A stretch of DNA of 64,000 bases from Candidatus Deferrimicrobiaceae bacterium (GTDB taxonomy: Bacteria; Desulfobacterota; Deferrimicrobia; Deferrimicrobiales; Deferrimicrobiaceae), in assembly GCA_036504035.1 (NCBI GenBank), contig DASXVV010000014.1:310001-374000 (forward strand), written 5' to 3'. Under the pieces are notes generated by a model, which worked only from the letters and a program-made list of their open reading frames with translations, made no database searches and was not told the origin of the DNA. Of this stretch, positions 17,237 through 37,410 are shown one piece after another. A program made the translations under genes and the position numbers. The first letter of the stretch is position 1, and the number at the start of each line of letters is the position of its first letter.

Positions 17237-18127
17237 TTACGTCTTCCGGTAGATTCCGAGGGTGACCCCGCCCACCACCAGCAATCCGCCTGCGAGTTGC
17301 GATGCGAGCAGCTTCTCGCCGAGAAAAAGCGAGGCGAGCAATACCCCAAAGACCGGAACCAGGTTCACGAACAGCGCAGACCTGGCTGTCCCGATCTTTT
17401 GGATCGCCTCATACCACCAGACGAAACCGACGACTGTCCCGAGCAAAGCGAGTTGCAGGACCGCGATCCATCCCCAGGTCGAGAGCCCGCCTGTTGACCC
17501 GCCGGTACTTCGTTCGAGGAAGGCACACGGTATCAGCAACAACGCGCCGAATAGCGATGCCCAGGAGGTCGCCTCCAGCGGGCTGCACCAATCTAGTACC
17601 CGTTTCCCCATCACCGAGAAGACGGCCCACGTCACCGGCGCCGCCACCAGAATCAGGTCGCCCGGGTTGAAGGAGAAATGACGGAGGGTTTCCCACGATC
17701 CCCCCGATACGATCGTCAGGACGCCGACGAGCGAGAGCGCGAAGCCGGCGATCTGCCTCGATCGAACGGCTTCTTTAAGCCAGATCGCCGAAAGCATGGC
17801 GGTCATGACCGGATTGATCGCGACGATGAGGGAGCCGTTCGATGCGGTGGTCAGTCGAAGTCCGACAAAGAAGGCAGTGTTGTAGATGAAGATGCCGACG
17901 GCGCCAAGGACAAAAAGCGTCCCCCACTGCTTCGCGCCGGTCGGAAACGGAAACCGAACTCCCGAGGCTCGCACTCTCAACGCGAGCAACCCGAACAGCG
18001 CAACGGTTGCGATGACGTACCGACAGGCAGCCACGAAAAACGGGGGCGCTTCGCCCACTGCGTAACGTGCGGCGACAAAGGTTCCACCCCAGAAAAAAGT
18101 GGTCAGGATCAACTTGAGATAAAGCAG
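17237..18127 (-). CDS. EamA/DMT-family transporter
   Basis: About 296 residues, ten transmembrane helices in two EamA repeats (FFWGGTFVAARYAVG near the start; VTWAVFSVMGKRVLD opening the second). DMT transporters export amino acids or other small metabolites; the substrate is not predictable. No ATG lies near the first helix. A CTG at 18127 sits 4 nt after a good GGAGG and gives the usual family length. A further in-frame TTG lies slightly downstream, and the frame is open upstream to 18442 without coding character. The start is therefore uncertain. It faces the cytochrome gene convergently and the copper ATPase divergently. Confidence 0.8.
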   Translation of the reverse strand: MLYLKLILTTFFWGGTFVAARYAVGEAPPFFVAACRYVIATVALFGLLALRVRASGVRFPFPTGAKQWGTLFVLGAVGIFIYNTAFFVGLRLTTASNGSLIVAINPVMTAMLSAIWLKEAVRSRQIAGFALSLVGVLTIVSGGSWETLRHFSFNPGDLILVAAPVTWAVFSVMGKRVLDWCSPLEATSWASLFGALLLIPCAFLERSTGGSTGGLSTWGWIAVLQLALLGTVVGFVWWYEAIQKIGTARSALFVNLVPVFGVLLASLFLGEKLLASQLAGGLLVVGGVTLGIYRKT

Positions 18128-18352: not shown

Positions 18353-20689
18353 ATGAATGAGACCCCCGGATCCTCGAAGGACCCTGTCTGCGGGATGACG
18401 GTCGCACCTGGAACGGGACTCCGGCATTCCCATGGCGGCCATGAATATTCATTCTGCAGCGACCATTGCCTGAACGCATTCAAATCGGACCCCGAGCGGT
18501 ACATCGATCCGGGGAAGCCGGATTTATCCGCTTCCGGAAATCCGGCAGAGCGGACCGATGACCATGCGACCGGGGACGGGTACACCTGCCCGATGCATCC
18601 AGAGGTCGTCAGCGATGCCCCCGGGAATTGCCCCAAGTGCGGCATGGCGCTGGAGCCCCGCACGATCACCGCGGAGGAACCGGAAAGCGGTGAGCTGACC
18701 GACATGCGCCGGCGCTTCCGGCTCGGCCTGCTCTTGACGGTGCCGCTCTTCCTCGTTGCCATGGGAGATCACATCCCGGGGCGCCCCCTGGACCATCTCA
18801 TCCCGGGTTGGTCCCGGATCTGGATCGAACTGCTCCTGGCGACGCCGGTCGTCCTCTGGGGCGGTTGGCCGTTCTTCGTCCGCGCGTGGCAGTCGATCCT
18901 GAACCGGAGTCCCAACATGTTCACGCTGATCGGGTTGGGTGTCGGCGTCGCGTACGTCTACAGCGTCATTGCCGTGCTGTTCCCCTCGATATTCCCTCCC
19001 TCCTTTCGCGATCCCGCCACAGGGGTGGCCGTCTATTTCGAGCCGGCGGCCGTCATCGTGGTGCTTGTCCTTCTTGGGCAGGTGCTGGAGCTGAAAGCGC
19101 GCAGCCGGACCGGAGCCGCGATCAAGGCGCTTCTCGGGCTTGCCCCCAAGACCGCGCGGCGCATTGGGGATGACGGCACAGAGGAGGACGTCCCGCTCGG
19201 TGAGGTTCATCCCGGGGATCGCCTTCGGGTTCGGCCCGGGGAGAAGGTCCCGGTAGACGGGATCGTCCTCGAAGGGAAAAGCGCGGTCGATGAATCGATG
19301 GTTTCGGGAGAGCCGATCCCCGTGTCCAAGGAGTCGGGCGGCCGGGTGATCGGCGCCACGGTCAACGGCACCGGATCGTTCGTGATGCGCGCGGAGCGTG
19401 TCGGGGCAGACACGGTGCTGGCCCGGATCGTCCGGATGGTCGGCGAAGCCCAGCGGAGCCGTGCCCCGATCCAGAAACTGGCGGACGTCGTCGCGGGCTA
19501 TTTCGTCCCCGCGGTGGTCGCCGTGGCCGCGGTCACCTTCGTCGCCTGGGGAATATGGGGTCCAGAACCGCGTATGGCGCGAGCACTCATCAACGCGGTG
19601 GCGGTCCTGATCATCGCCTGTCCCTGTGCCCTCGGCCTGGCGACGCCGATGTCGATCATGGTGGCCATGGGGAAAGGGGCGTTGGCCGGAGTCCTGTTCC
19701 GGAACGCCGAGGCGATCGAGGTGATGCGCAAGGTGGACACGCTCGTCGTCGACAAGACCGGTACGCTGACCGAGGGAAAACCACGATTGGCGACGGTGTC
19801 CGCCGCCGACGGGTGGGACGCCCCGGGACTTCTGAAATTTGCGGCCGGGCTGGAAAAGGGGAGCGAGCACCCGCTCGCGGCCGCCATCGTGGCGGGCGCC
19901 CGGGAGCGCGGAGTCGACGTCCCGGAAGCGGGGTCGTTCGAATCGGTGACGGGGCAGGGGGTCACGGGGACCGTGGAAGGGCGCGCTGTCGTCCTCGGCA
20001 ATCGCACGCTGCTCGAATCGCTGGGAATCGCCCCGGAGAAGCTTGCCCGTGAAGCCGAGTCGCTTCGCGCGGACGGGCAGACCGTGATGTACGTCGCCGT
20101 GGACGGCAAGCCCGCGGGCCTTTTGGGCGTTTCCGACCCGATCAAGGAGAGTACGCCGGATGCGATCCGTTCCCTGCACGACGAAGGGATCCGGATCGTG
20201 ATGCTCACGGGCGACAGTCGCACGACCGCCGAGGCGGTGGCCAAAAAGCTGGGGATCGACGAGGTGCTGGCCGAGGTGCTCCCCGACCAGAAGGCCGATG
20301 CGGTGAAACGTTTTCAGGCGGAGGGGCGGATCGTGGCCATGGCGGGCGACGGGATCAACGACGCACCGGCGCTGGCCCAGGCCCATGTGGGAATCGCGAT
20401 GGGTACCGGGACCGATGTGGCGATGGAGAGCGCGGGCGTCACCCTGGTCAAGGGGGATCTGCGGGGTATCGTCCGGGCGCGCCGCCTGAGCCGTGCGACG
20501 ATGGGCAACATCAAGCAGAACCTCTTCTTTGCCTTCGTCTACAACGCGCTGGGGGTTCCCGTCGCGGCGGGCGTCCTCTATCCGTCCTTCGGGATCCTGC
20601 TGAGCCCGATCATCGCCGCGGCGGCGATGAGCCTGAGCTCGGTTTCCGTCGTCGGCAATGCGTTGCGGCTGCGAAGGGTCCGGCTTTGA
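18353..20689 (+). CDS. Copper-type P1B ATPase with YHS and heavy-metal-binding domains
   Basis: A 778-residue transporter. It lacks a classical HMA domain; instead residues about 9-45 form a YHS domain (DPVCGMTV ... EYSFCSDHC) and about 77-105 an HMBD ([19 protein letters not shown]). The pump core shows the CPC metal site in [13 protein letters not shown] (about 419-431), phosphorylation motif [11 protein letters not shown] (about 467) and hinge [13 protein letters not shown]. This architecture is typical of CopA2/CopB-like copper or silver exporters. GGAAGG precedes the ATG. The 225-nt divergent spacer shows no clear CueR-type operator. Confidence 0.9.
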
Positions 20690-20884
20690 ATGGCGTTCAT
20701 TTCGTGAGAATACTCTCACCTGTCTTGAAGATTATTCTTTGAAGATGAGTTGTCTTTCCGGTGTCTCAGATCACAACGTGCCGTTTTAACACGATTATCT
20801 TCTTGGGCACGGCCGATGCATATTTCCTTGGCAACTACACCGATCGGCAATCGGATTGCCGAAGGAAGAAAAAGGAGAGCAAAG

Positions 20885-21136
20885 ATGAAGAGCATCGGAA
20901 GCGTTATGATCATGGCGGCGGTGATGATGTTGGTGGGTGGATCAACCCTGGCGATGGCGGCGGAAAAAGAGGAGTCGGCGCCGGAGAAAGGCACCTGGCA
21001 GTACGATTATGCGATGGAGACCGGAACGCTCGAACCCGTCGGGACGGGAACTTTCAAAGAGGGCAATATCCCCCAGGTCGAGGAGACGGTGGTGATCGGC
21101 GGGATGACCTATCGGGTCCACATCGACCTGCCGTAA
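20885..21136 (+). CDS. Small secreted protein of unknown function
   Basis: An 83-residue protein with AAGGAGAG just before the ATG and a clear signal peptide ending STLAMA (about residue 25). The mature part of about 58 residues is acidic and beta-prone, with GTWQYDYAMETGTLEPVG. No cysteine or known domain is seen. It sits alone between the copper ATPase and the metK promoter. The 195-nt stretch before it holds a small inverted repeat (GTGAGA-ATAC-TCTCAC, 20704-20719) that could be an operator or weak hairpin. Confidence 0.6.
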   Translation: MKSIGSVMIMAAVMMLVGGSTLAMAAEKEESAPEKGTWQYDYAMETGTLEPVGTGTFKEGNIPQVEETVVIGGMTYRVHIDLP

Positions 21137-21143
21137 AAAAAGG

Positions 21144-21172
21144 TTGACACCGATCGCGTGTCGGGTTATAAG
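21144..21172 (+). promoter_or_regulatory. Strong sigma-70-type promoter for the metK leader
   Basis: TTGACA (21144-21149), 17-nt spacer, TATAAG (21167-21172). The -35 is perfect and the -10 is near perfect. It starts 8 nt after the stop of the preceding small gene and faces metK. An inverted repeat overlaps the end of the -10 and the likely transcription start. Confidence 0.8.
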
Positions 21173-21186
21173 TCTATCAAGTAGAC
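21172..21186. promoter_or_regulatory. Inverted-repeat operator at the metK promoter
   Basis: GTCTA (21172-21176), spacer TCAAG, TAGAC (21182-21186): a perfect repeat covering the start region, where a bound protein would block transcription. TCTATA/TATAGA variants occur before the sulfite reductase (36134-36152) and the sulfate-binding protein (37393-37410), pointing to a common sulfur regulator. The regulator is not in the window. Confidence 0.55.
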
Positions 21187-21279
21187 AGACATAATAGTTA
21201 ATATGGCCCGGGGAATTACCCGGACCCACGCTGACCAGACCACTGGAGGCCGAGGGAAATATTCCCTCGGCCTTTTTTT
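21178..21279 (+). ncRNA. Structured metK 5' leader, candidate attenuator or riboswitch
   Basis: About 100 nt between the promoter and an intrinsic terminator, 54 nt short of metK. It contains a CCGGG/CCCGG hairpin (21208-21223), then CTGACCAGACCACTGGA (21231-21247) with a CCAG/CTGG mini-hairpin, leading directly into the terminator stem. Two GGCC segments (21205-21208 and 21248-21251) could form alternative pairings. It does not show the SAM-I core, SAM-II or SAH consensus as I know them. A premature terminator before metK implies regulated read-through; the ligand could be SAM, methionine or sulfur status. It might instead be a separate small RNA. Confidence 0.5.
21248..21279 (+). terminator. 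Intrinsic terminator inside the metK leader
   Basis: GGCCGAGGGAA (21248-21258), loop ATA, perfect complement (21262-21272), then seven T residues (21273-21279). This is a textbook rho-independent terminator located upstream of metK, downstream of the only obvious promoter. Confidence 0.88.
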
Positions 21280-21332
21280 ATTTCCCGCGCCGACGTTGCG
21301 CGGAATTCGAATCCTGGAAGGGGGGATAGGAA

Positions 21333-22523
21333 ATGGCAGGCAAGCGGCATCTGTTTACATCCGAATCGGTCACGGAGGGGCATCCCGACAAGCTGGCCGA
21401 CCAGATCTCGGATGCGATCCTCGACGCGTTTTTGGAAAAGGATCCGCTGTCGCGCGTCGCGGCCGAAACCAGCGTGACCACCGGGCTGACGGTCGTGATC
21501 GGCGAAGTGTCCTCGAAGGCGCAGCTGAACGTGGCCCGGATCGCGCGGGACACCATCGCGTCGGTCGGGTATACGAAAGCCGAATACGGGCTCGATGCCG
21601 AGCACAGCGCAGTGCTCGTATCGCTCGACCAGCAGTCTCCGGACATCGCGCAGGGCGTCGATCAGGCATTCGAACAGCGTTCCGGCGGGGGCCATGACGG
21701 ACGGCTGGACGCAATCGGCGCAGGAGACCAGGGAATGGTGTTCGGCTACGCGACCGACGAGACGCCGGAATATCTCCCGACGAGCATCGCGTTGGCGCAC
21801 GGACTGACCCGGAAGCTGGCGCAAGCGCGCAAAAGCGGGGCGATCCCGTTTCTTCGGCCCGACGGAAAGAGCCAGGTAACCGTCGAATTCGAGGACGGCC
21901 GCCCGGTACGGATCGACACGATCGTGGTCTCCACCCAGCACGGTCCCGACGTCGACCTGGATCAAATCCGTAAAGCGGTCATCGACGGCATCGTCACGCC
22001 GGTCATTCCCGAAAACCTGCTCGACGACCGCACGAAATATTTCATCAACCCGACCGGTCGTTTCGTGGTCGGCGGCCCCCACGGCGATGCGGGCCTGACG
22101 GGCCGCAAGATCATCGTCGACACGTACGGGGGCGCCGCGCGTCACGGGGGCGGCGCCTTTTCGGGTAAAGACCCCACGAAGGTCGACCGCTCTGGCGCTT
22201 ACGCGGCAAGGCACGCCGCGAAAAACATCGTGGCGGCAGGGCTGGCGAAGCGGGTCGAGATCCAGGTCGCCTATGCGATCGGCGTCGCGCGACCCGTTTC
22301 CGTCTTCGTCGACAGCTTCGGGACCGGCGTCCTCCCGGAAGAGGAGCTGGCGAGACTGATCACCCGCACCTTCGACCTGCGTCCCGCCGCGATCATCGAG
22401 CGACTCGACCTGCGCAGGCCCATCTACAGGCAGACGGCGGCGTACGGCCATTTCGGGCGGCTGGATCTCGACCTCCCCTGGGAACGGGTCGACTTCGCCC
22501 GGGAACTCGAAAAAATCGCATAG
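21333..22523 (+). CDS. metK: S-adenosylmethionine synthetase
   Basis: A 396-residue cytosolic enzyme making SAM from methionine and ATP. Canonical motifs are all present: [21 protein letters not shown] at the N-terminus, [12 protein letters not shown] (about 129-140), the P-loop-like [13 protein letters not shown] (about 248-260) and [16 protein letters not shown] (about 271-286). Length is normal. It is the first gene of a run continuing with the SDR, the radical-SAM-like protein and the nitrogenase-like genes (gaps of 33, 41, -4, 16 and 1 nt). Supplying SAM to two radical-SAM-like proteins, or recycling methionine sulfur, would both explain its place. Confidence 0.95.
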
Positions 22524-22556
22524 GCCCCGCCGCAACCGGGCCGGAAAGGAAACGCA

Positions 22557-23321
22557 ATGTCATTCAAGGACAAGGTCGCCATCGTGACGGGGGCATCCAA
22601 CGGGATCGGGCGGGCGATCGCGCTCGAATTCGCAAGCAAGGGCGCCGGCGTCGTCGTGAACGGGCGCAATGCGGAAAAGGTCCAGGCGGTCGTCGAAGCG
22701 ATTCGCAGAAACGGCGGCACCGCGCTCGGCGTGTCGGCGGATGTCTCCAAAAAGGATCAGGTCGAGCGGCTCGTCCAGTCGACGCTGGGGAATTTCGGAC
22801 GGATCGACGTGCTGGTCAACAACGCCGGCGGCGATAGCAAAACCCGGACGGTCGAAGGGCTGCCCGAGGCGGAATGGGACCAGGTGGTCGACAACAACCT
22901 GAAAAGCGTCTTCCTCGTCTCGCAGGCGGTCATCCCGACGCTCAAGCGGCAAAAAAGCGGGCGGATCATCAACATCTCATCGCAGGCGGGCCGGGCCCTG
23001 ACAATCCTGGCCGGTCCCCATTATGCGGCCGCCAAGGCCGGCGTGATCGGCTTCGGCAAGCAGCTCGCGAAGGAACTCTCGCCGCATGGGATCAACGTGA
23101 ATACGGTCGCTCCCGGCATCATCAACAGCAGCGAGCGTCTCGAGGCCGTATGGGAATCGTTCCCGGCGGAGTCGCGAAAGCGGTTCCTGGAGGACATCCC
23201 GCTGGGACGTCTGGGGGACAACCGGGAAATCGTTGCCACCGTCCTGTTCCTCGCCTCGGAAGGGGCGGGCTACATCACCGGCGCAACCATTGACGTCAAC
23301 GGCGGTCGCTGGATGCTGTGA
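22557..23321 (+). CDS. Short-chain dehydrogenase/reductase, FabG-like
   Basis: A 254-residue NAD(P)-dependent oxidoreductase of the classical SDR type: cofactor motif TGASNGIG (about 12-19), NNAGG (about 89-93), catalytic Ser in NISSQAG and YxxxK in HYAAAKAGV, and C-terminal TGATIDVNGG. It belongs to the 3-ketoacyl-ACP-reductase-like group, whose members act on many carbonyl or alcohol substrates. In this operon it might process the carbon fragment released or used by the nitrogenase-like system; that is inference. Start ATG 22557 follows GGAAAGGAA. Confidence 0.85.
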   Translation: MSFKDKVAIVTGASNGIGRAIALEFASKGAGVVVNGRNAEKVQAVVEAIRRNGGTALGVSADVSKKDQVERLVQSTLGNFGRIDVLVNNAGGDSKTRTVEGLPEAEWDQVVDNNLKSVFLVSQAVIPTLKRQKSGRIINISSQAGRALTILAGPHYAAAKAGVIGFGKQLAKELSPHGINVNTVAPGIINSSERLEAVWESFPAESRKRFLEDIPLGRLGDNREIVATVLFLASEGAGYITGATIDVNGGRWML

Positions 23322-23362: not shown

Positions 23363-24580
23363 ATGTCTGAAGCAAAGCCCGCATACGGACTCAAGGACCT
23401 GTTGTGGAAGGAATTGGAGCTCAAGCTTGACCTCGGCATGAACGGCGTGGCCGTTACCAAGGAAGCGCTGGCGAAGATCCAGCCGGGAACCGTCGCCCAG
23501 GAGCAGGTGCACTGCCTGTTCGAATACGATTTCGACACGCACGATTTCACGCTTCCGTCCGGATTCAACCTGCCGCTGGGGTTGAGCGTTCCCTTCCGCT
23601 GGAACCGGGATGCCGCCCATACAGTCACCGTCGACGGCGAACGGGTCATCCTCGTGAAGAAGGGGAACGAGATCGCCGAGATCGACTTCCATCCCCGCCC
23701 CGCCTTCTACGGGAAGAAGACCTCGGACGGCAAGGAGATGGACACCATCGCCATCCTCAACCAGAAGCGTGCGCTCTTCATCGTCTACAGCAACGAGTGC
23801 TCGTACAAGGAGAAGGGGGAAGACTGCCTCTTCTGCAACATCAACTTCACGAAGGATACCTACGGCGAGAAGGAAGGCATCTTCTGGAAGACGGCCCGCC
23901 AGATCGGGGAAACCGCGGCCGAGGCGTTCCGGGAAGGCATCATCGACCACTTGACGGTCACCGGCGGCGTCATTCCCGAGCGGCGCGAACTGGAATACTA
24001 CCTGGACGTGGCGGAAGAGATCCGCATCCACACCGGGCGCGACGATTTCAACGGCACAGCGACCGTTGCCGCCCCGCTCGACCTGCGCAACCTGGACCGG
24101 CTGAAAGAGGCGGGATACCGCACCACGGCGATGAACCTGGAGCTGTGGGACAAGGGATTCTACGACACGATCTGCCCGGGCAAGGCGCGCGGCGGCGGGG
24201 GGTGGGACCACTGGCTCAAGGCGCTCGAATACGCCGTCGGCGTGTTCGGTCGCGGCCGGGTCCGGTCCAACTTCGTCGCGGGGATCGAGCCCAAGTTCAA
24301 GACGCTCGAGGGGCTCGAATACCTGGCAGAAAAAGGCGTTGTCGGCATCAATTCCGTGTGGATTCCATGCCCCGGTTCCGGGCTCGAAGGCCATCGTTCG
24401 CCCGTACCGGCCTGGTATATGGACCTCGCGTTCAAGCTGGTGCCGATCTGGAAGAAGGCCGGCTTTACGTTCGAGCAGGTCTGCGATGCGAACGCCTCGT
24501 CGGACTACCTGCAGCACGACATCTGGCGGATCGAGGACGAGCTGCTCCCGATATTCGGGGAGGCGAAGGCGGCGTCGTGA
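23363..24580 (+). CDS. Radical-SAM-like protein with CX8CX2C motif (paralogue A)
   Basis: A 405-residue protein. An N-terminal domain of about 135 residues ends with [18 protein letters not shown]; the core begins with SNEC (C146), then C155 and C158, a CX8CX2C arrangement in place of the canonical CX3CX2C. Downstream features fit a radical-SAM barrel: VTGGVIPE (GGE-like), NFVAGIE and a closing [10 protein letters not shown]. The ligand motif and barrel support a [4Fe-4S]-SAM enzyme, but the reaction is unknown. Its last codon overlaps the NifH-like gene by 4 nt, so the two are translationally coupled. A maturase or a partner enzyme for the nitrogenase-like complex are both possible. A paralogue lies at 30749. 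Confidence 0.75.
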
Positions 24581-25468: not shown

Positions 25469-26863
25469 ATGTCACGACAAAAAACGGCTCCTGCGAGGGA
25501 AAAACGGATCAGGACGATCGGTGCGTTCATCGGTCCGATCGAGCGATTGATCGACGAACTTCGGGACCACGAATTGCCCCAGCGGATCCGGACGTATTCG
25601 GAAGCGGCCTCGGACGACCTCGTCCAGGCGCTTCGGCTGCTTTCGGGAATCGAGGGCGCGGGGATCATCGTCCACGGTCCGAGGGGTTGCGCCGCTTCGG
25701 TCATCGAAAGCGACCGGCCCGCCAGCGTTGTCGTCACCCATCTGGACGAACGCGACACCATCATGGGATCCGACAGGGCCGTATCGCAAGCGGCCCGGAA
25801 GCTCGTCGCCCGCGCCCGGCCATGGGTCATCCTGCTCGTCGGTACTCCCGTCGTCGCCATCAACAATGACGACATCCGATCGACGGCGAGCGAGTTGTCG
25901 GAGGAGCTGGGCCTCCCTGTCCTTCCCATATTCTGCGACGGGTTTCGATCCCGGTTCGCGGAGACGGGATTCGACGTGGCGTTCCACGGTCTTCTCAAGC
26001 TGATTCCCCGGAGGGACGGTCCTGCCGAAAAGGGGCTGGTCAATCTCCTGTCGATCACGGAAGGAGACGCGGCTGCCGTCCGGATATCGAAGCTGCTCGA
26101 TGGGTTCGGAATCCGGGTCAATCGGTTGCCTGCCGGCGCCGGTTCCGCGCAATTCGAAGGAGCGGGTCGCGCAGTCGCTTCCGTGGGCATCGATCCCGAT
26201 GCAACGAGATACCTGGGGCGCGACCTGGCGTCATCCCACGGAATCCCGTTTCTGGACGTGCCGCCCCCCATCGGAGTCGTGGGGACGAAGGCGTGGCTGG
26301 AAGCCGTGGCCCGGGCTGCCGGCGTGGAGGAGAAGGTGCCGCTGGTCCATGGGGTAGAACTTTCTAATCTTCCGGCAGGGTTCGGTCGGGCGCTGTCGGG
26401 CATGGACGTTTGGATCGGGTTCCCGCCGTCCGTAGCGCTCGCCGCCGCAGGATTGGTGGGAGAGATGGGCGGCCGCGTAAGCGGCTTGTCGGTCGACTAC
26501 GCGGATGCGGGTCATGCCGCGCGGCTGGACGCCCTTGCGGCGAATCACCCGGCACTGCCGGTCCATGCGGGGGTCGGTCAGACGTTCGAGGCGGTCAACC
26601 TGCTGCGACGGAATCCGCCGGCGCTATACATCGGAACGCCCGATCGCGCAGCCGTCGCAACCCGCGCCGGCATTCCGGCCGTGGGCATCCTGCCCGACGA
26701 GTTGCTGGGATATCGGGGCGTCTGCGCCCTGGTCCGGCGTGCCGCGAAAGCGCTGAAGAATCGCGGGTTCGCGGACAGCCTTTCCGGTGTGGCGTCTTCG
26801 AGGTACCGGGACGGCTGGCTTCGCAGGAGCCCCGACTGGCACATCAAGATGGAGGTGAAGTGA
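25469..26863 (+). CDS. NifD-like catalytic subunit of a divergent nitrogenase-like reductase
   Basis: A 464-residue member of the oxidoreductase nitrogenase component 1 family. Of the three P-cluster cysteines of NifD only the HGPRGC position is kept (C74). The first is absent from the N-terminus, and the third, before NNDDI (GDDI in NifD), is Thr126. Around the FeMo-cofactor ligand the segment before SSHGIPF reads VGIDPDATRYLG with no Cys, and the region expected to hold the homocitrate-side His is LLGYRGV. A nitrogenase-type cofactor is therefore unlikely. With the K subunit's three cysteines, one bridging [4Fe-4S] cluster is predicted. The gene runs 1 nt before its partner. Subunit naming (D versus K) rests on order and these motifs. 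Confidence 0.82.
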   Translation: MSRQKTAPAREKRIRTIGAFIGPIERLIDELRDHELPQRIRTYSEAASDDLVQALRLLSGIEGAGIIVHGPRGCAASVIESDRPASVVVTHLDERDTIMGSDRAVSQAARKLVARARPWVILLVGTPVVAINNDDIRSTASELSEELGLPVLPIFCDGFRSRFAETGFDVAFHGLLKLIPRRDGPAEKGLVNLLSITEGDAAAVRISKLLDGFGIRVNRLPAGAGSAQFEGAGRAVASVGIDPDATRYLGRDLASSHGIPFLDVPPPIGVVGTKAWLEAVARAAGVEEKVPLVHGVELSNLPAGFGRALSGMDVWIGFPPSVALAAAGLVGEMGGRVSGLSVDYADAGHAARLDALAANHPALPVHAGVGQTFEAVNLLRRNPPALYIGTPDRAAVATRAGIPAVGILPDELLGYRGVCALVRRAAKALKNRGFADSLSGVASSRYRDGWLRRSPDWHIKMEVK

Positions 26864-26864
26864 C

Positions 26865-28154
26865 ATGGCCCATCCGCTTTATCGGTCTCGAACCGGATGC
26901 GCCCTGCACGGCGCCATCCGGGCCGCGCGGGCCATTCCTGGCGTGGTGCCGGTGGTTCATTCGACCGCCGGGTGCAGCGCCCCACGGGAATTCGGAAGCG
27001 GGCTGCCCTCGACCGGCATCGTCGAGAAGCAGGTGGTTTTCGGCGGATCGTCGCGCCTCCGGGAACAGTTGAAGAACGCGCTGAAAGTGGTCTCCGGCGA
27101 CCTGTACGTCGTGCTCGGCGGTTGCGCGCCCGAACTGGTGGGAGACGACATCCCGGCCATGACGAAAGAGGCCGTGGAACAGGGATATCCGGTCATCTGC
27201 GCGGCGTCCGCCGGTTTTCGCGGGTCGGCTTTCGACGGGTACCGGTTGTTTCTAAAGGCGCTGATCGAGAATCTGCCGGATGCCCCATCAGGGGGGAACG
27301 ACAAGATCCCCGGCCTCGTCAACCTGCTCGGGATCGTCCCCGGAGGCCACGCGACCTGGGAAGGCGATCTTGCGGAGCTCGGTCGAGTCCTTGAACGAAC
27401 GAATCTCAAGGCCAACCCGGTATTCGGATATGGCGGAGGGATCGACGGCGTGCGAGGACTTGCGCGGGCGCAGCGGAGCGTCGTTTTTTCACCGTGGGGG
27501 CTCGACGCAGCCAGGCTGCTCGAAGCGCGCTTCGGAATTCCGTGGACCGATGCCGGGGCGATCCCGGTCGGTGCGGCCGAAACCGCCTCATTTCTTGAAG
27601 TGCTGGGTCGGGAGGCGGGACTTGGCGCGGACGCCCTCGAAGAACGATTGTCCGACGAAGCGCGACGGGAGCGTCACTTCCTCGACCGGCTGCCCGATAC
27701 GACGTTCGGTTACGACTTCCAGAAGGATTTCGCCATCGTCGGACCCGGGTCGCAGGCGCTCGGCGTCGCCCGCTTCCTGACCGCAACGCTCGGGTGGCTG
27801 CCGTCGCTGGTCGTTGCCACGGACAATCCCCCCGAATCGGCGCGCCAGGCGCTGGATCGTGCCGTGTCCGGAATCCTGCCCGATTTCGGGTCGAAACTGC
27901 TGTTTTGCGAGGATGCCGGGGAGATCCGGGACGCGATCGTGGACCGCGATGTGGAATTCGTGATCGGAAGCTCGCTGGAGCGCGAGGCGGCGAACGCGTT
28001 GAATATCCCGCTGCTCGAGTGGTCGCCTCCGGTCAGAGACGGACTGATCCTGGAAACGGGTTTCGCCGGCTTCCGCGGCGGTCTCTCCCTCGTGGAAGCG
28101 CTGAGCCGCGTGATCCTGTCGTTCGATCAAGTCGATCCCCGCGCACGCCGATGA
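26865..28154 (+). CDS. NifK-like subunit of a divergent nitrogenase-like reductase
   Basis: A 429-residue component 1 protein keeping all three P-cluster-type cysteines: C12 (RTGCALHGA), C37 (HSTAGCS) and C87 (LGGCAPELVGDDI). The VVFGGSSRLREQL segment (57-69) is the family's usual stretch between cysteines two and three. It lacks the long N-terminal extension of true NifK. Mid-protein FSPWGLDAARLLEARFGIPW is also typical. Together with C74 of the D-like partner this gives four thiolate ligands for one cluster at the interface. It ends the metK-led run; a 156-nt spacer follows. Confidence 0.85.
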   Translation: MAHPLYRSRTGCALHGAIRAARAIPGVVPVVHSTAGCSAPREFGSGLPSTGIVEKQVVFGGSSRLREQLKNALKVVSGDLYVVLGGCAPELVGDDIPAMTKEAVEQGYPVICAASAGFRGSAFDGYRLFLKALIENLPDAPSGGNDKIPGLVNLLGIVPGGHATWEGDLAELGRVLERTNLKANPVFGYGGGIDGVRGLARAQRSVVFSPWGLDAARLLEARFGIPWTDAGAIPVGAAETASFLEVLGREAGLGADALEERLSDEARRERHFLDRLPDTTFGYDFQKDFAIVGPGSQALGVARFLTATLGWLPSLVVATDNPPESARQALDRAVSGILPDFGSKLLFCEDAGEIRDAIVDRDVEFVIGSSLEREAANALNIPLLEWSPPVRDGLILETGFAGFRGGLSLVEALSRVILSFDQVDPRARR

Positions 28155-28310
28155 GTCACGGCGGGCAAGTTTCAATGAAATAAACGCGTTTTTATTTTAC
28201 CGGTCCGAGCAAGTGGCGAGCCGCAAGAGCGGCAGCCGGAACAAGAAGGAGAACAAGAGCAGCGACTGACCAGTCCACTGGAAGCGCGAATCCGAAAAAG
28301 GAGAAGAACG
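28155..28310 (+). promoter_or_regulatory. Spacer and leader before the porin/transport run
   Basis: 156 nt with an AT-rich start (28178-28200) that could hold a promoter, a GCCGC-AAGA-GCGGC hairpin, and CTGACCAGTCCACTGGA (28266-28282), which matches 16 of 17 bases of the motif in the metK leader (21231-21247). A GAAAAAGGAGAAG ribosome-binding site follows. There is no T-tract terminator. The shared motif suggests co-regulation with metK at RNA or DNA level. Confidence 0.4.
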
Positions 28311-29642
28311 ATGCGTGCTTTCAGGTTCATGAACGGGTTGCTGGTATTGCTGGTCCTTCTCGCCCCGATCTCCAGGGCAAGGGCGGACGAGGTGCCGCCT
28401 TCGGACGGGCCTCCCTCCACCGGTGCGGAAGCGAACGAGCGGACGGAATACGTGACGCAGACCGACCTGCAGGGGGTCCGGGCGGAGCTCGAGACGCTGC
28501 GCGAGCAGTGGACGCGAACCCTCGACAAGAACACCGCGCAGACGTCGCGGCCTCTCACGGTCGGCGGCATCGCGCAGGTCCGCTACACCGCGTCCGAAAA
28601 CAAGAAGGTCAACAACAGCTTCGACATCGCGGCGCTGATCCTCAACTTTCGCGGAAACCTGCGGAAAGACTACGAGGAGGGGCGGAACGTCGACTACCTG
28701 TTCAGCTTCGTAAGCCCCAGCGGTGCGAATGCCAACGGCAGCGCGGATTTCACCGTCCGGCCGCTGGATGCGTACATCAGTTATTTCCTCCTCCCTTCCC
28801 TCGACTTCGAAAAGCCGCTGCTGAGCATCACGCTCGGTCAGCAGAAGAAGCCGTTCGGACTCGAGGCGCTCGCGACCGAGGAGAAGAAGCCGACGATCAA
28901 AAGCGCGCAGAGCGCCACGACGCTCGGCCTCGATCCCCGCGACATCGGGCTGGTCGTCAAGGGTGACCTGTTCCCGTATTACGACGCCGGCTTCCGGTAT
29001 CGCGTGCCGTTGGTCGAATACTCGGTCGGCCTGCTCAATGGGAGCGGCCCCAACGCGACCGACGACAACGGGCACAAGGATGTCTCCGGCCGCGTCGTGC
29101 TCAACGCGCCCGTCGACTACAACTCCATCTTCCGCGGCCTTTCGCTCGGCGGCTCCGCTTATCTCGGACGCCAGAACGTCGGGGTCGGGACGGCGGTGGC
29201 GCAACAAGGCGCGAAGAACCGGTACGGCGTCGACCTGGCTTACGTGAACACCCCGGTCGGCTTCACCGCGGAATATGTGCGCGGGGAGGACGGGAAGCTC
29301 CTGTCCGGCACGAGTGTGGACAACGCCGTATTCGGAAAGATCCAGAGCGAGGGATTCACGTTCACGGTCTTCTACAACTTCGGCGAGCAGTTCCTCCGCG
29401 GCTTCAAGGCGCAGGACCGCTACGACGACTGGTACCCGCTCACCTTCCAGCCCTTCGTCCGATTCGACCGGTGGGATCCGAATCTCAAGGCGGGCGGCGA
29501 CCGGATCGACATCACCACACTCGGCTTCAACTGGTTCTTCGCGGAAACGACCAAGCTGCAGCTCAACTACAACAACAAGAAGCAGCAGGGCGTGAATGTC
29601 GCGAACAACGAGTTCCTCGCGCAGTTCCAGTTCGGATTCTAG
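28311..29642 (+). CDS. Outer-membrane porin, phosphate-selective porin O/P type
   Basis: A 443-residue protein with signal peptide (to about ARA, residue 24), a short coiled region with TDLQGVRAELETLRE, then a beta-barrel with alternating hydrophobic strands and a terminal Phe (QFQFGF), the outer-membrane sorting signal. QQKKPFGLEALATEE and PRDIGLVVKGD are typical of the OprO/OprP-like family. These porins pass anions such as phosphate, or sulfonated and carboxylated organics. Standing directly before a sulfonate-type ABC binding protein, it is probably the outer-membrane entry for the same anionic sulfur compound. Confidence 0.82.
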   Translation: MRAFRFMNGLLVLLVLLAPISRARADEVPPSDGPPSTGAEANERTEYVTQTDLQGVRAELETLREQWTRTLDKNTAQTSRPLTVGGIAQVRYTASENKKVNNSFDIAALILNFRGNLRKDYEEGRNVDYLFSFVSPSGANANGSADFTVRPLDAYISYFLLPSLDFEKPLLSITLGQQKKPFGLEALATEEKKPTIKSAQSATTLGLDPRDIGLVVKGDLFPYYDAGFRYRVPLVEYSVGLLNGSGPNATDDNGHKDVSGRVVLNAPVDYNSIFRGLSLGGSAYLGRQNVGVGTAVAQQGAKNRYGVDLAYVNTPVGFTAEYVRGEDGKLLSGTSVDNAVFGKIQSEGFTFTVFYNFGEQFLRGFKAQDRYDDWYPLTFQPFVRFDRWDPNLKAGGDRIDITTLGFNWFFAETTKLQLNYNNKKQQGVNVANNEFLAQFQFGF

Positions 29643-36124: not shown

Positions 36125-36152
36125 TTGACATTGTCTATAGGTCTTGTATAGA
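36125..36152 (+). promoter_or_regulatory. Promoter and operator for the sulfite reductase gene
   Basis: TTGACA (36125-36130), 16-nt spacer, TATAGA (36147-36152). Within it TCTATA (36134-36139) and TATAGA (36147-36152) form an inverted repeat with a 7-nt spacer, the right arm being the -10 itself. The same half-sites occur before metK and the sulfate-binding protein. Confidence 0.65.
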
Positions 36153-37392: not shown

Positions 37393-37410
37393 TCTATAAA
37401 AACTATAGAC
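37393..37410. promoter_or_regulatory. Inverted-repeat operator before the sulfate transporter
   Basis: TCTATA (37393-37398), spacer AAAAC, TATAGA with a following C (37404-37410), in a 61-nt AT-rich spacer between the TusA-like gene and the sulfate-binding protein. The region is much more AT-rich than its surroundings and probably contains an internal promoter. The half-sites match those at 36134-36152. Confidence 0.55.

What the first reader, a model, noticed from the sequence alone, without database searches (positions are those of the whole stretch)
21144..21332. metK leader with promoter, operator and attenuator-like terminator: candidate new riboswitch
Seen: consensus promoter, perfect inverted repeat at the start site, about 70 nt of structured leader, then a perfect 11-bp terminator with seven T, all upstream of metK with no second obvious promoter. 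It does not match SAM-I, SAM-II or SAH consensus features that I know. Inferred: conditional termination controls metK and, through it, the nitrogenase-like operon. The two GGCC segments offer a possible antiterminator.
Basis: partly seen in the sequence, partly recalled or inferred. Interest (0 to 1): 0.7.

Follow-up and report, generated by a model that had tools for sequence, protein, structure and literature searches.

The report
Sulfur-gene attenuator RNA before metK
A short RNA hairpin ahead of a SAM-synthase gene can fold either as an antiterminator or as part of a transcription terminator; the same switch sits before sulfur-scavenging genes in many Geobacter-like bacteria and some Clostridia, and matches no RNA family in Rfam.

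Summary
In detail: a promoter, an inverted repeat at the start site, a structured leader and a strong intrinsic terminator lie upstream of metK. It is a 22-nt hairpin, GCU-GA-CCAG-ACCA-CUGG-A-GGCC (21230-21251), whose 3' strand is also the base of the terminator. A pattern built from three leaders hit 79 sites in 277 genomes of Geobacter's class, against 1 for the reversed pattern. A covariance model then found about 150 strong members or more there, several in other lineages of the phylum and about eight in Clostridia. In 111 aligned copies, hairpin and terminator are 99% paired with compensatory changes at 12 of 14 pairs. The shared bases covary with both alternative partners, which is direct evidence for a terminator/antiterminator switch. 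Most annotated downstream genes act in sulfur metabolism: metK, cysK, metY, sulfate and sulfonate transport, nitrogenase-like genes. No locus scanned has an Rfam match over the element. The sensor is unknown: a RAT-like RNA-binding protein or a small metabolite. 'Riboswitch' is unproven. The MetK tree suggests the gene, and probably the leader with it, was acquired from a Geobacter relative.

The parts
21144..21172 (+). promoter: TTGACA, 17 nt, TATAAG
   Evidence: sequence read directly; L165, upstream of a metK that also has the motif, shows a similar TATAAAGTCTATCAAATAG arrangement
21172..21186 (.). operator-like inverted repeat GTCTATCAAGTAGAC over the start site
   Evidence: TCTAY-N-RTAGA occurs upstream of 9 of 106 leaders, 0.57 expected
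21208..21223 (+). 5' leader hairpin CCGGG-N6-CCCGG; not conserved, so probably accessory
   Evidence: no conservation at these positions in relatives
21230..21251 (+). conserved core: antiterminator hairpin GCU-GA-CCAG-ACCA-CUGG-A-GGC plus C; lower stem 21230-21232 with 21248-21250
   Evidence: pattern match; fold; compensatory changes in the lower stem; triple covariation; model score 67.9 bits
21247..21279 (+). intrinsic terminator, 12-bp stem (21247-21258 with 21262-21273) and U-run, sharing AGGCC with the antiterminator
21333..22523 (+). metK, second (acquired) SAM synthase
   Evidence: TIGR01034, 567.9 bits; groups with metK of Geobacter relatives, 100/100 support
22557..23321 (+). SDR-family oxidoreductase
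23363..24580 (+). radical SAM protein (NF045502), IsrB/NflB-like
   Evidence: PMC11423573
24577..25452 (+). NifH-like reductase (NflH/IsrH-like); start inferred
25469..26863 (+). NifD-like subunit (NflD/IsrD-like)
26865..28154 (+). NifK-like subunit (NflK/IsrK-like)
28266..28286 (+). second, degenerate copy of the core (CTGACCAGTCCACTGGAAGCG), 25 bp before the porin start, no terminator
   Evidence: 14.2 bits, E 0.07; the Geobacter homologue of this porin has an intact copy with terminator (L069:2200-2249, 68.2 bits)
28311..29642 (+). porin (PF07396)
   Evidence: 62% identical to the porin in L069
29682..36095 (+). rest of operon: SsuA-like binding protein, radical SAM protein, FMN-binding-like protein, MFS transporter, permeases, ABC ATPase
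36134..36152 (.). second operator-like site TCTATAGGTCTTGTATAGA at the promoter before the sulfite-reductase-like gene (36179)
37393..37409 (.). third operator-like site TCTATAAAAACTATAGA before the sulfate-binding protein gene (37434)

Best explanation
The nascent leader first folds a 22-nt hairpin: lower stem GCY/GGC, a GA/A internal loop, a 4-bp upper stem and an A-rich loop. Its 3' strand GGCC is also the first part of the terminator stem. Left alone, the longer terminator stem displaces the lower stem and transcription stops before metK. When a factor binds and holds the hairpin, the base of the terminator cannot form and RNA polymerase continues into metK and the sulfonate-assimilation operon. 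The conserved domain is itself the antiterminator, so binding should turn genes ON, which fits a starvation signal. I think an RNA-binding protein is most likely, as with BglG/LicT and their RAT hairpins. Shown by comparison: the two mutually exclusive structures (about 0.93 likely), their conservation and the sulfur gene context. Inferred: direction of control, sulfur signal, protein sensor, and function in this host; the confidence below is for the whole chain.
For: 79 sites against 1 for the reversed pattern in 277 genomes. The N and N' positions left free in the pattern are A-U, G-C or U-A in 62 of 79. Hairpin plus terminator 99.1% paired, compensatory changes at 12 of 14 pairs, every shuffle control beaten. 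Antiterminator: changes on both sides at 7 of its 8 pairs, including lower-stem pairs that were not in the model. Rows in which one shared base changes together with both partners: L163, L172, L191, L267, L262, L265, L266, and Clostridia L282 and L292. Fold of the window RNA is antiterminator up to 21270 and terminator at 21280. Downstream genes. Cross-phylum members. Sharp edges of conservation, about 23 nt, argue for a small recognition hairpin.
Against: No expression data, no mapped transcript ends and no identified sensor. In this genome the element occurs only twice, both in one operon that looks acquired, so a dedicated trans-acting protein may be missing here. Some downstream genes are not obviously sulfur genes (D-Ala ligase-like L174, beta-lactamase fold L148, ankyrin L185, sigma factor L283). 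Alignment A2 was fitted to the hairpin-plus-terminator structure. No candidate RNA-binding protein was sought across genomes.
Confidence: 0.55

Rival explanations
1. A very small metabolite riboswitch: the hairpin itself binds a sulfur-status metabolite (for example O-acetylserine, O-acetylhomoserine or another starvation signal), which stabilises the antiterminator.
For: Works without a dedicated protein, which fits an element carried into this host with its operon. Spread across Desulfobacterota and Clostridia with one gene theme. Invariant unpaired GA and A. Tandem copies, each with its own terminator (L152, L156, L158, L184).
Against: About 22 nt with only three invariant unpaired bases and a variable loop is smaller than almost all known aptamers (own knowledge). 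The gene set mixes methionine, cysteine, sulfate and sulfonate steps, with no single obvious ligand.
Confidence: 0.28
2. A plain terminator, or the 3' end of a stand-alone small RNA made from the 21144 promoter, with no regulation.
For: Strong terminator close to the promoter; weak similarity to sRNA models BjrC68 and SdsR.
Against: Conserved core and covarying alternative stem; most sites lie ahead of genes on the same strand; Rfam sRNA matches far below cut-off.
Confidence: 0.05
3. An ANTAR-type antiterminator with two hexaloop hairpins, bound by an ANTAR protein.
For: Antitermination logic and a hairpin upstream that overlaps the terminator.
Against: ANTAR targets need two hairpins with six-base loops carrying A at 1 and G at 4 (PMC3369931). 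Here one hairpin is conserved, with a four-base ANNA loop.
Confidence: 0.02
4. The class is real, but the copy in this genome is an acquired relic without its sensor, so metK is simply attenuated or read through at a fixed rate.
For: Two copies only, one already degenerate with no terminator; acquired-looking metK.
Against: The metK copy is intact at every conserved position and scores 67.9 bits, near the top of the family.
Confidence: 0.1

Closest known systems
RAT hairpins of BglG/LicT/SacY-type antitermination (own knowledge)
   Same: A small hairpin with an asymmetric internal loop whose 3' strand overlaps the terminator; binding would stabilise it and allow readthrough
   Different: Different sequence; sulfur genes instead of sugar PTS genes; no CAT-domain protein identified
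ANTAR-target RNAs (PMC3369931)
   Same: Protein-stabilised antiterminator overlapping a terminator
   Different: One conserved hairpin, ANNA four-base loop, no A1/G4 hexaloops
SAM-I (S-box), SAM-II, SAM-III, SAH, SAM-SAH and SAM-Chlorobi riboswitches
   Same: Control methionine and SAM-cycle genes, some by termination; Geobacter uses S-boxes at metX and metIC (PMC545781, PMC2700814)
   Different: No Rfam match over the element in any locus scanned; far smaller; the conserved part is the antiterminator
metXZ element of beta-proteobacteria (PMC4239095)
   Same: Predicted terminator/antiterminator RNA for methionine genes
   Different: Six conserved regions with a proposed pseudoknot, and a terminator not conserved in sequence
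Predicted attenuator upstream of sulfonate ABC transporters in bacilli (PMC2965389)
   Same: Predicted attenuator at sulfonate transport genes
   Different: Alignment is in a supplement I could not open, so whether it is the same element is unknown
Isr/Nfl isethionate assimilation operon of Rhodobacter capsulatus (PMC11423573)
   Same: Radical SAM plus NifHDK-like genes and an SsuABC-type transporter, as in this operon
   Different: Its regulation by RNA is not described; no convincing copy of the element in L065 or L066

Membership tests
Known SAM/SAH riboswitch classes and all other Rfam families | Covariance-model score at or above gathering threshold | tested here: not met
   No match over the element in the window, L065-L072, or in the loci
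BjrC68 sRNA (RF02353) | Score at or above 39 bits | tested here: not met
   24.2 bits
T-box | Rfam T-box match with specifier and antiterminator bulge | tested here: not met
   A T-box was found in L067 but elsewhere (17485-17736); none over the element
ANTAR-target RNA | Two hairpins with hexaloops, A at 1 and G at 4 | tested here: not met
   Single conserved hairpin with four-base ANNA loop; criteria
ANTAR-target RNA | Bound by an ANTAR protein | not tested
   No search for ANTAR proteins was made
RAT (BglG/LicT) | Hairpin overlapping and excluding the terminator | tested here: met
   Shared bases covary with both partners
RAT (BglG/LicT) | RAT consensus sequence | not tested
   No RAT model was run separately
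RAT (BglG/LicT) | Bound by a CAT-domain antiterminator protein | not testable with these tools
   Needs binding assays; genome co-occurrence was not searched
Riboswitch (general) | Direct metabolite binding by the RNA | not testable with these tools
   Needs in-line probing or in vitro transcription
Transcription attenuator with mutually exclusive stems | Two alternative pairings supported by covariation | tested here: met

The most novel reading that the evidence does not exclude
A new, exceptionally small riboswitch class, shared by Desulfobacterota and Clostridia, in which a hairpin of about 22 nt binds a sulfur-starvation metabolite and acts as an ON switch for sulfur-scavenging genes.
Probability: 0.28. 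Interest if true: 0.92.

Novelty: new variant of a known kind. Interest (0 to 1): 0.78.

Why it matters
How Geobacter-like anaerobes control sulfur assimilation beyond two S-box leaders is not described in the papers I could read. This element appears to tie metK, cysK, metY, sulfate and sulfonate uptake and the nitrogenase-like C-S cleaving enzymes into one regulon read at the RNA level. It predicts either a new RNA-binding antiterminator protein or an unusually small aptamer, and it makes the search for the sensor directly testable in cultured Geobacter relatives or a Clostridium.

Tried and rejected
(2) BLAST of the leader in plasmids and in 395 genomes of the phylum: only terminator-like or short chance hits; it missed the family because the core is too short. 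(3) Upstream regions of 29 metK genes of relatives: no similarity. (4) BjrC68 as a family: below cut-off; papers on Shewanella and Vibrio genomes also mention it (not read), which may mean a loose model. (5) CTAT-N3-ATAG operator with one mismatch: not clearly enriched (7 against 4.15); the wider TCTAY-N-RTAGA form is. (6) GTCTA-N5-TAGAC across the own genome: the near-identical second copy lies inside a reverse-transcriptase-like gene. (7) R1 matches below about 36 bits in the phylum look like ordinary terminators; the E-values there are too generous.

Full report
Observation. The described parts are present: TTGACA-17-TATAAG at 21144-21172, GTCTATCAAGTAGAC at 21172-21186, a structured leader, and a 12-bp terminator with seven T (21247-21279) before metK (21333). 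Folding energy is well beyond shuffles. Rfam has no match at cut-off. The strict promoter scan lists nothing in 20600-22600 because the -10 ends in G.

Setting. metK here is a second SAM synthase. The genome's other metK (contig C2) is about 60% identical and groups with same-family relatives, while this one sits with 100/100 support among metK genes of Geobacter relatives whose leaders carry the same element. It heads metK, SDR, radical SAM, NifH-, NifD- and NifK-like genes, porin, SsuA-like protein, radical SAM, MFS and an ABC transporter. Radical SAM plus NifHDK-like genes with SsuABC release sulfite from isethionate in Rhodobacter capsulatus (PMC11423573). The next genes in the window look like a sulfate assimilation cluster: sulfite-reductase-like, sulfate-binding protein, permeases, CysA-like ATPase, PAPS reductase and a GTPase subunit. 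So the region is a sulfur-scavenging island.

Finding the family. Direct BLAST failed. One scan for the radical SAM protein gave eight loci in several phyla. The Geobacter sp. UBA698 genome among them has a metK 80% identical to this one, and two of its leaders, before metK and before the homologous porin, share CTGACC-N8-GGAGGCC plus terminator with the window. The pattern CTGACCNGNNNNCNGGAGGCC found 79 sites in 277 genomes of that class, against 1 for the reversed pattern. Letters fixed in the pattern are conserved by construction. The free positions are informative: N and N' are A-U 42, G-C 11, U-A 9 of 79, the base before CUGACC is G in 53 of 59, and the loop is mostly ANAA. Upstream sequence is not conserved, so the edges are sharp.

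Structure. Model R1 from 26 copies found about 150 or more matches above 47 bits in that class (the list was cut). In the wider phylum it found strong matches in a few other families, among them f83, which also carries nitrogenase-like genes. In 111 aligned copies, hairpin and terminator are 99.1% paired with compensatory changes at 12 of 14 pairs. The lower stem, which was not in the model, also shows compensatory changes. The same bases that pair with the 5' strand in the antiterminator pair with the 3' arm in the terminator, and rows exist where all three change together: GAC/GGUC/GACC in L163 and L267, GUU/GACC/GGUC in L172, GACC/GGUU/AACC in L191, A/GGCU/AGCC in L262, L265, L266. Clostridia add AAAC/GGUUU/AAACC (L282) and, by eye in a weak match, GGUU/GACU/AGUC (L067 18428). 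This is the strongest evidence for mutually exclusive stems. Unpaired G, A (columns 7, 8) and A (column 32) are nearly invariant. The window RNA itself folds as antiterminator up to 21270 and as terminator once 21280 is reached.

Gene context. First genes downstream include metK, cysK, metY, sulfate-binding protein, MetN-like and sulfonate-type ABC ATPases, a sulfite/nitrite reductase-like protein, NifH- and NifB-like proteins, MtaA/corrinoid methyltransferase proteins, porins and rhodaneses. Several sites follow a small gene ending KIRxNRxGHIDGSGI, which I recognise from memory as a DUF2292/YezD-like protein; in L104 it follows a gene that reads like cysK. In Clostridia the genes are NifH-like, NifB-like, MetY, SsuC-like permeases and a radical SAM protein. 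Not all fit: a D-Ala ligase, a beta-lactamase fold, an ankyrin protein and a sigma factor also appear. Tandem copies occur (L152, L156, L158, L184).

DNA-level control. In the window it matches three times (0.35 expected), each time just before a sulfur gene or operon: 21173, 36134 and 37393. A sulfur-responsive DNA-binding regulator probably acts in addition to the attenuator.

Mechanism and limits. The conserved part is the antiterminator, so whatever binds it should switch genes on; the sulfur gene set suggests a starvation signal. That step, and the nature of the sensor, are inference. Papers read or searched do not describe the element; one 2010 study mentions an attenuator at sulfonate transporters in bacilli whose alignment I could not compare.

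Noticed in passing
28266-28286: A copy of the core hairpin without GGCC or terminator, ending 25 bp before the porin start; the porin homologue in Geobacter has the intact attenuator there. It may be a relic or a translational version.
   Followed up: partly
36134-36152 and 37393-37409: Two further TCTAT..ATAGA palindromes at promoters of the sulfate assimilation genes, like the one at the metK start site; probably sites of one sulfur regulator.
   Followed up: partly
21146-21162 and 21134-21143 with 21271-21280: GACAC-N7-GTGTC palindrome between -35 and -10 (three in the genome), and a perfect 10-bp complement between an A-run before the promoter and the terminator T-run; neither explained.
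   Followed up: partly
L156:605-755, L158:605-759, L184:599-710, L152:4971-5079: Tandem attenuators, each with its own terminator, in Geobacter relatives.
   Followed up: no
L146, L150, L193:3772: The element also precedes MtaA/corrinoid methyltransferase and CoA-dehydratase-activase-like genes, which resemble the mlp gene clusters of PMC10418091; this suggests those clusters serve sulfur recovery.
   Followed up: no
L161:272-321 and L161:204-255 (opposite strand to L161:609-671): Three copies in one stretch facing two directions; one has GCUCACC, the only change seen at the otherwise invariant G.
   Followed up: no
L082:1293-2246 (own genome, contig C8): Reverse-transcriptase-like gene with a YVDD motif next to a small HTH gene, possibly retron-like.
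   Followed up: no
L292:981-1137: A TwoAYGGAY RNA (RF01731, 44.8 bits) about 360 bp upstream of a copy of the element in a Clostridia genome.
   Followed up: no
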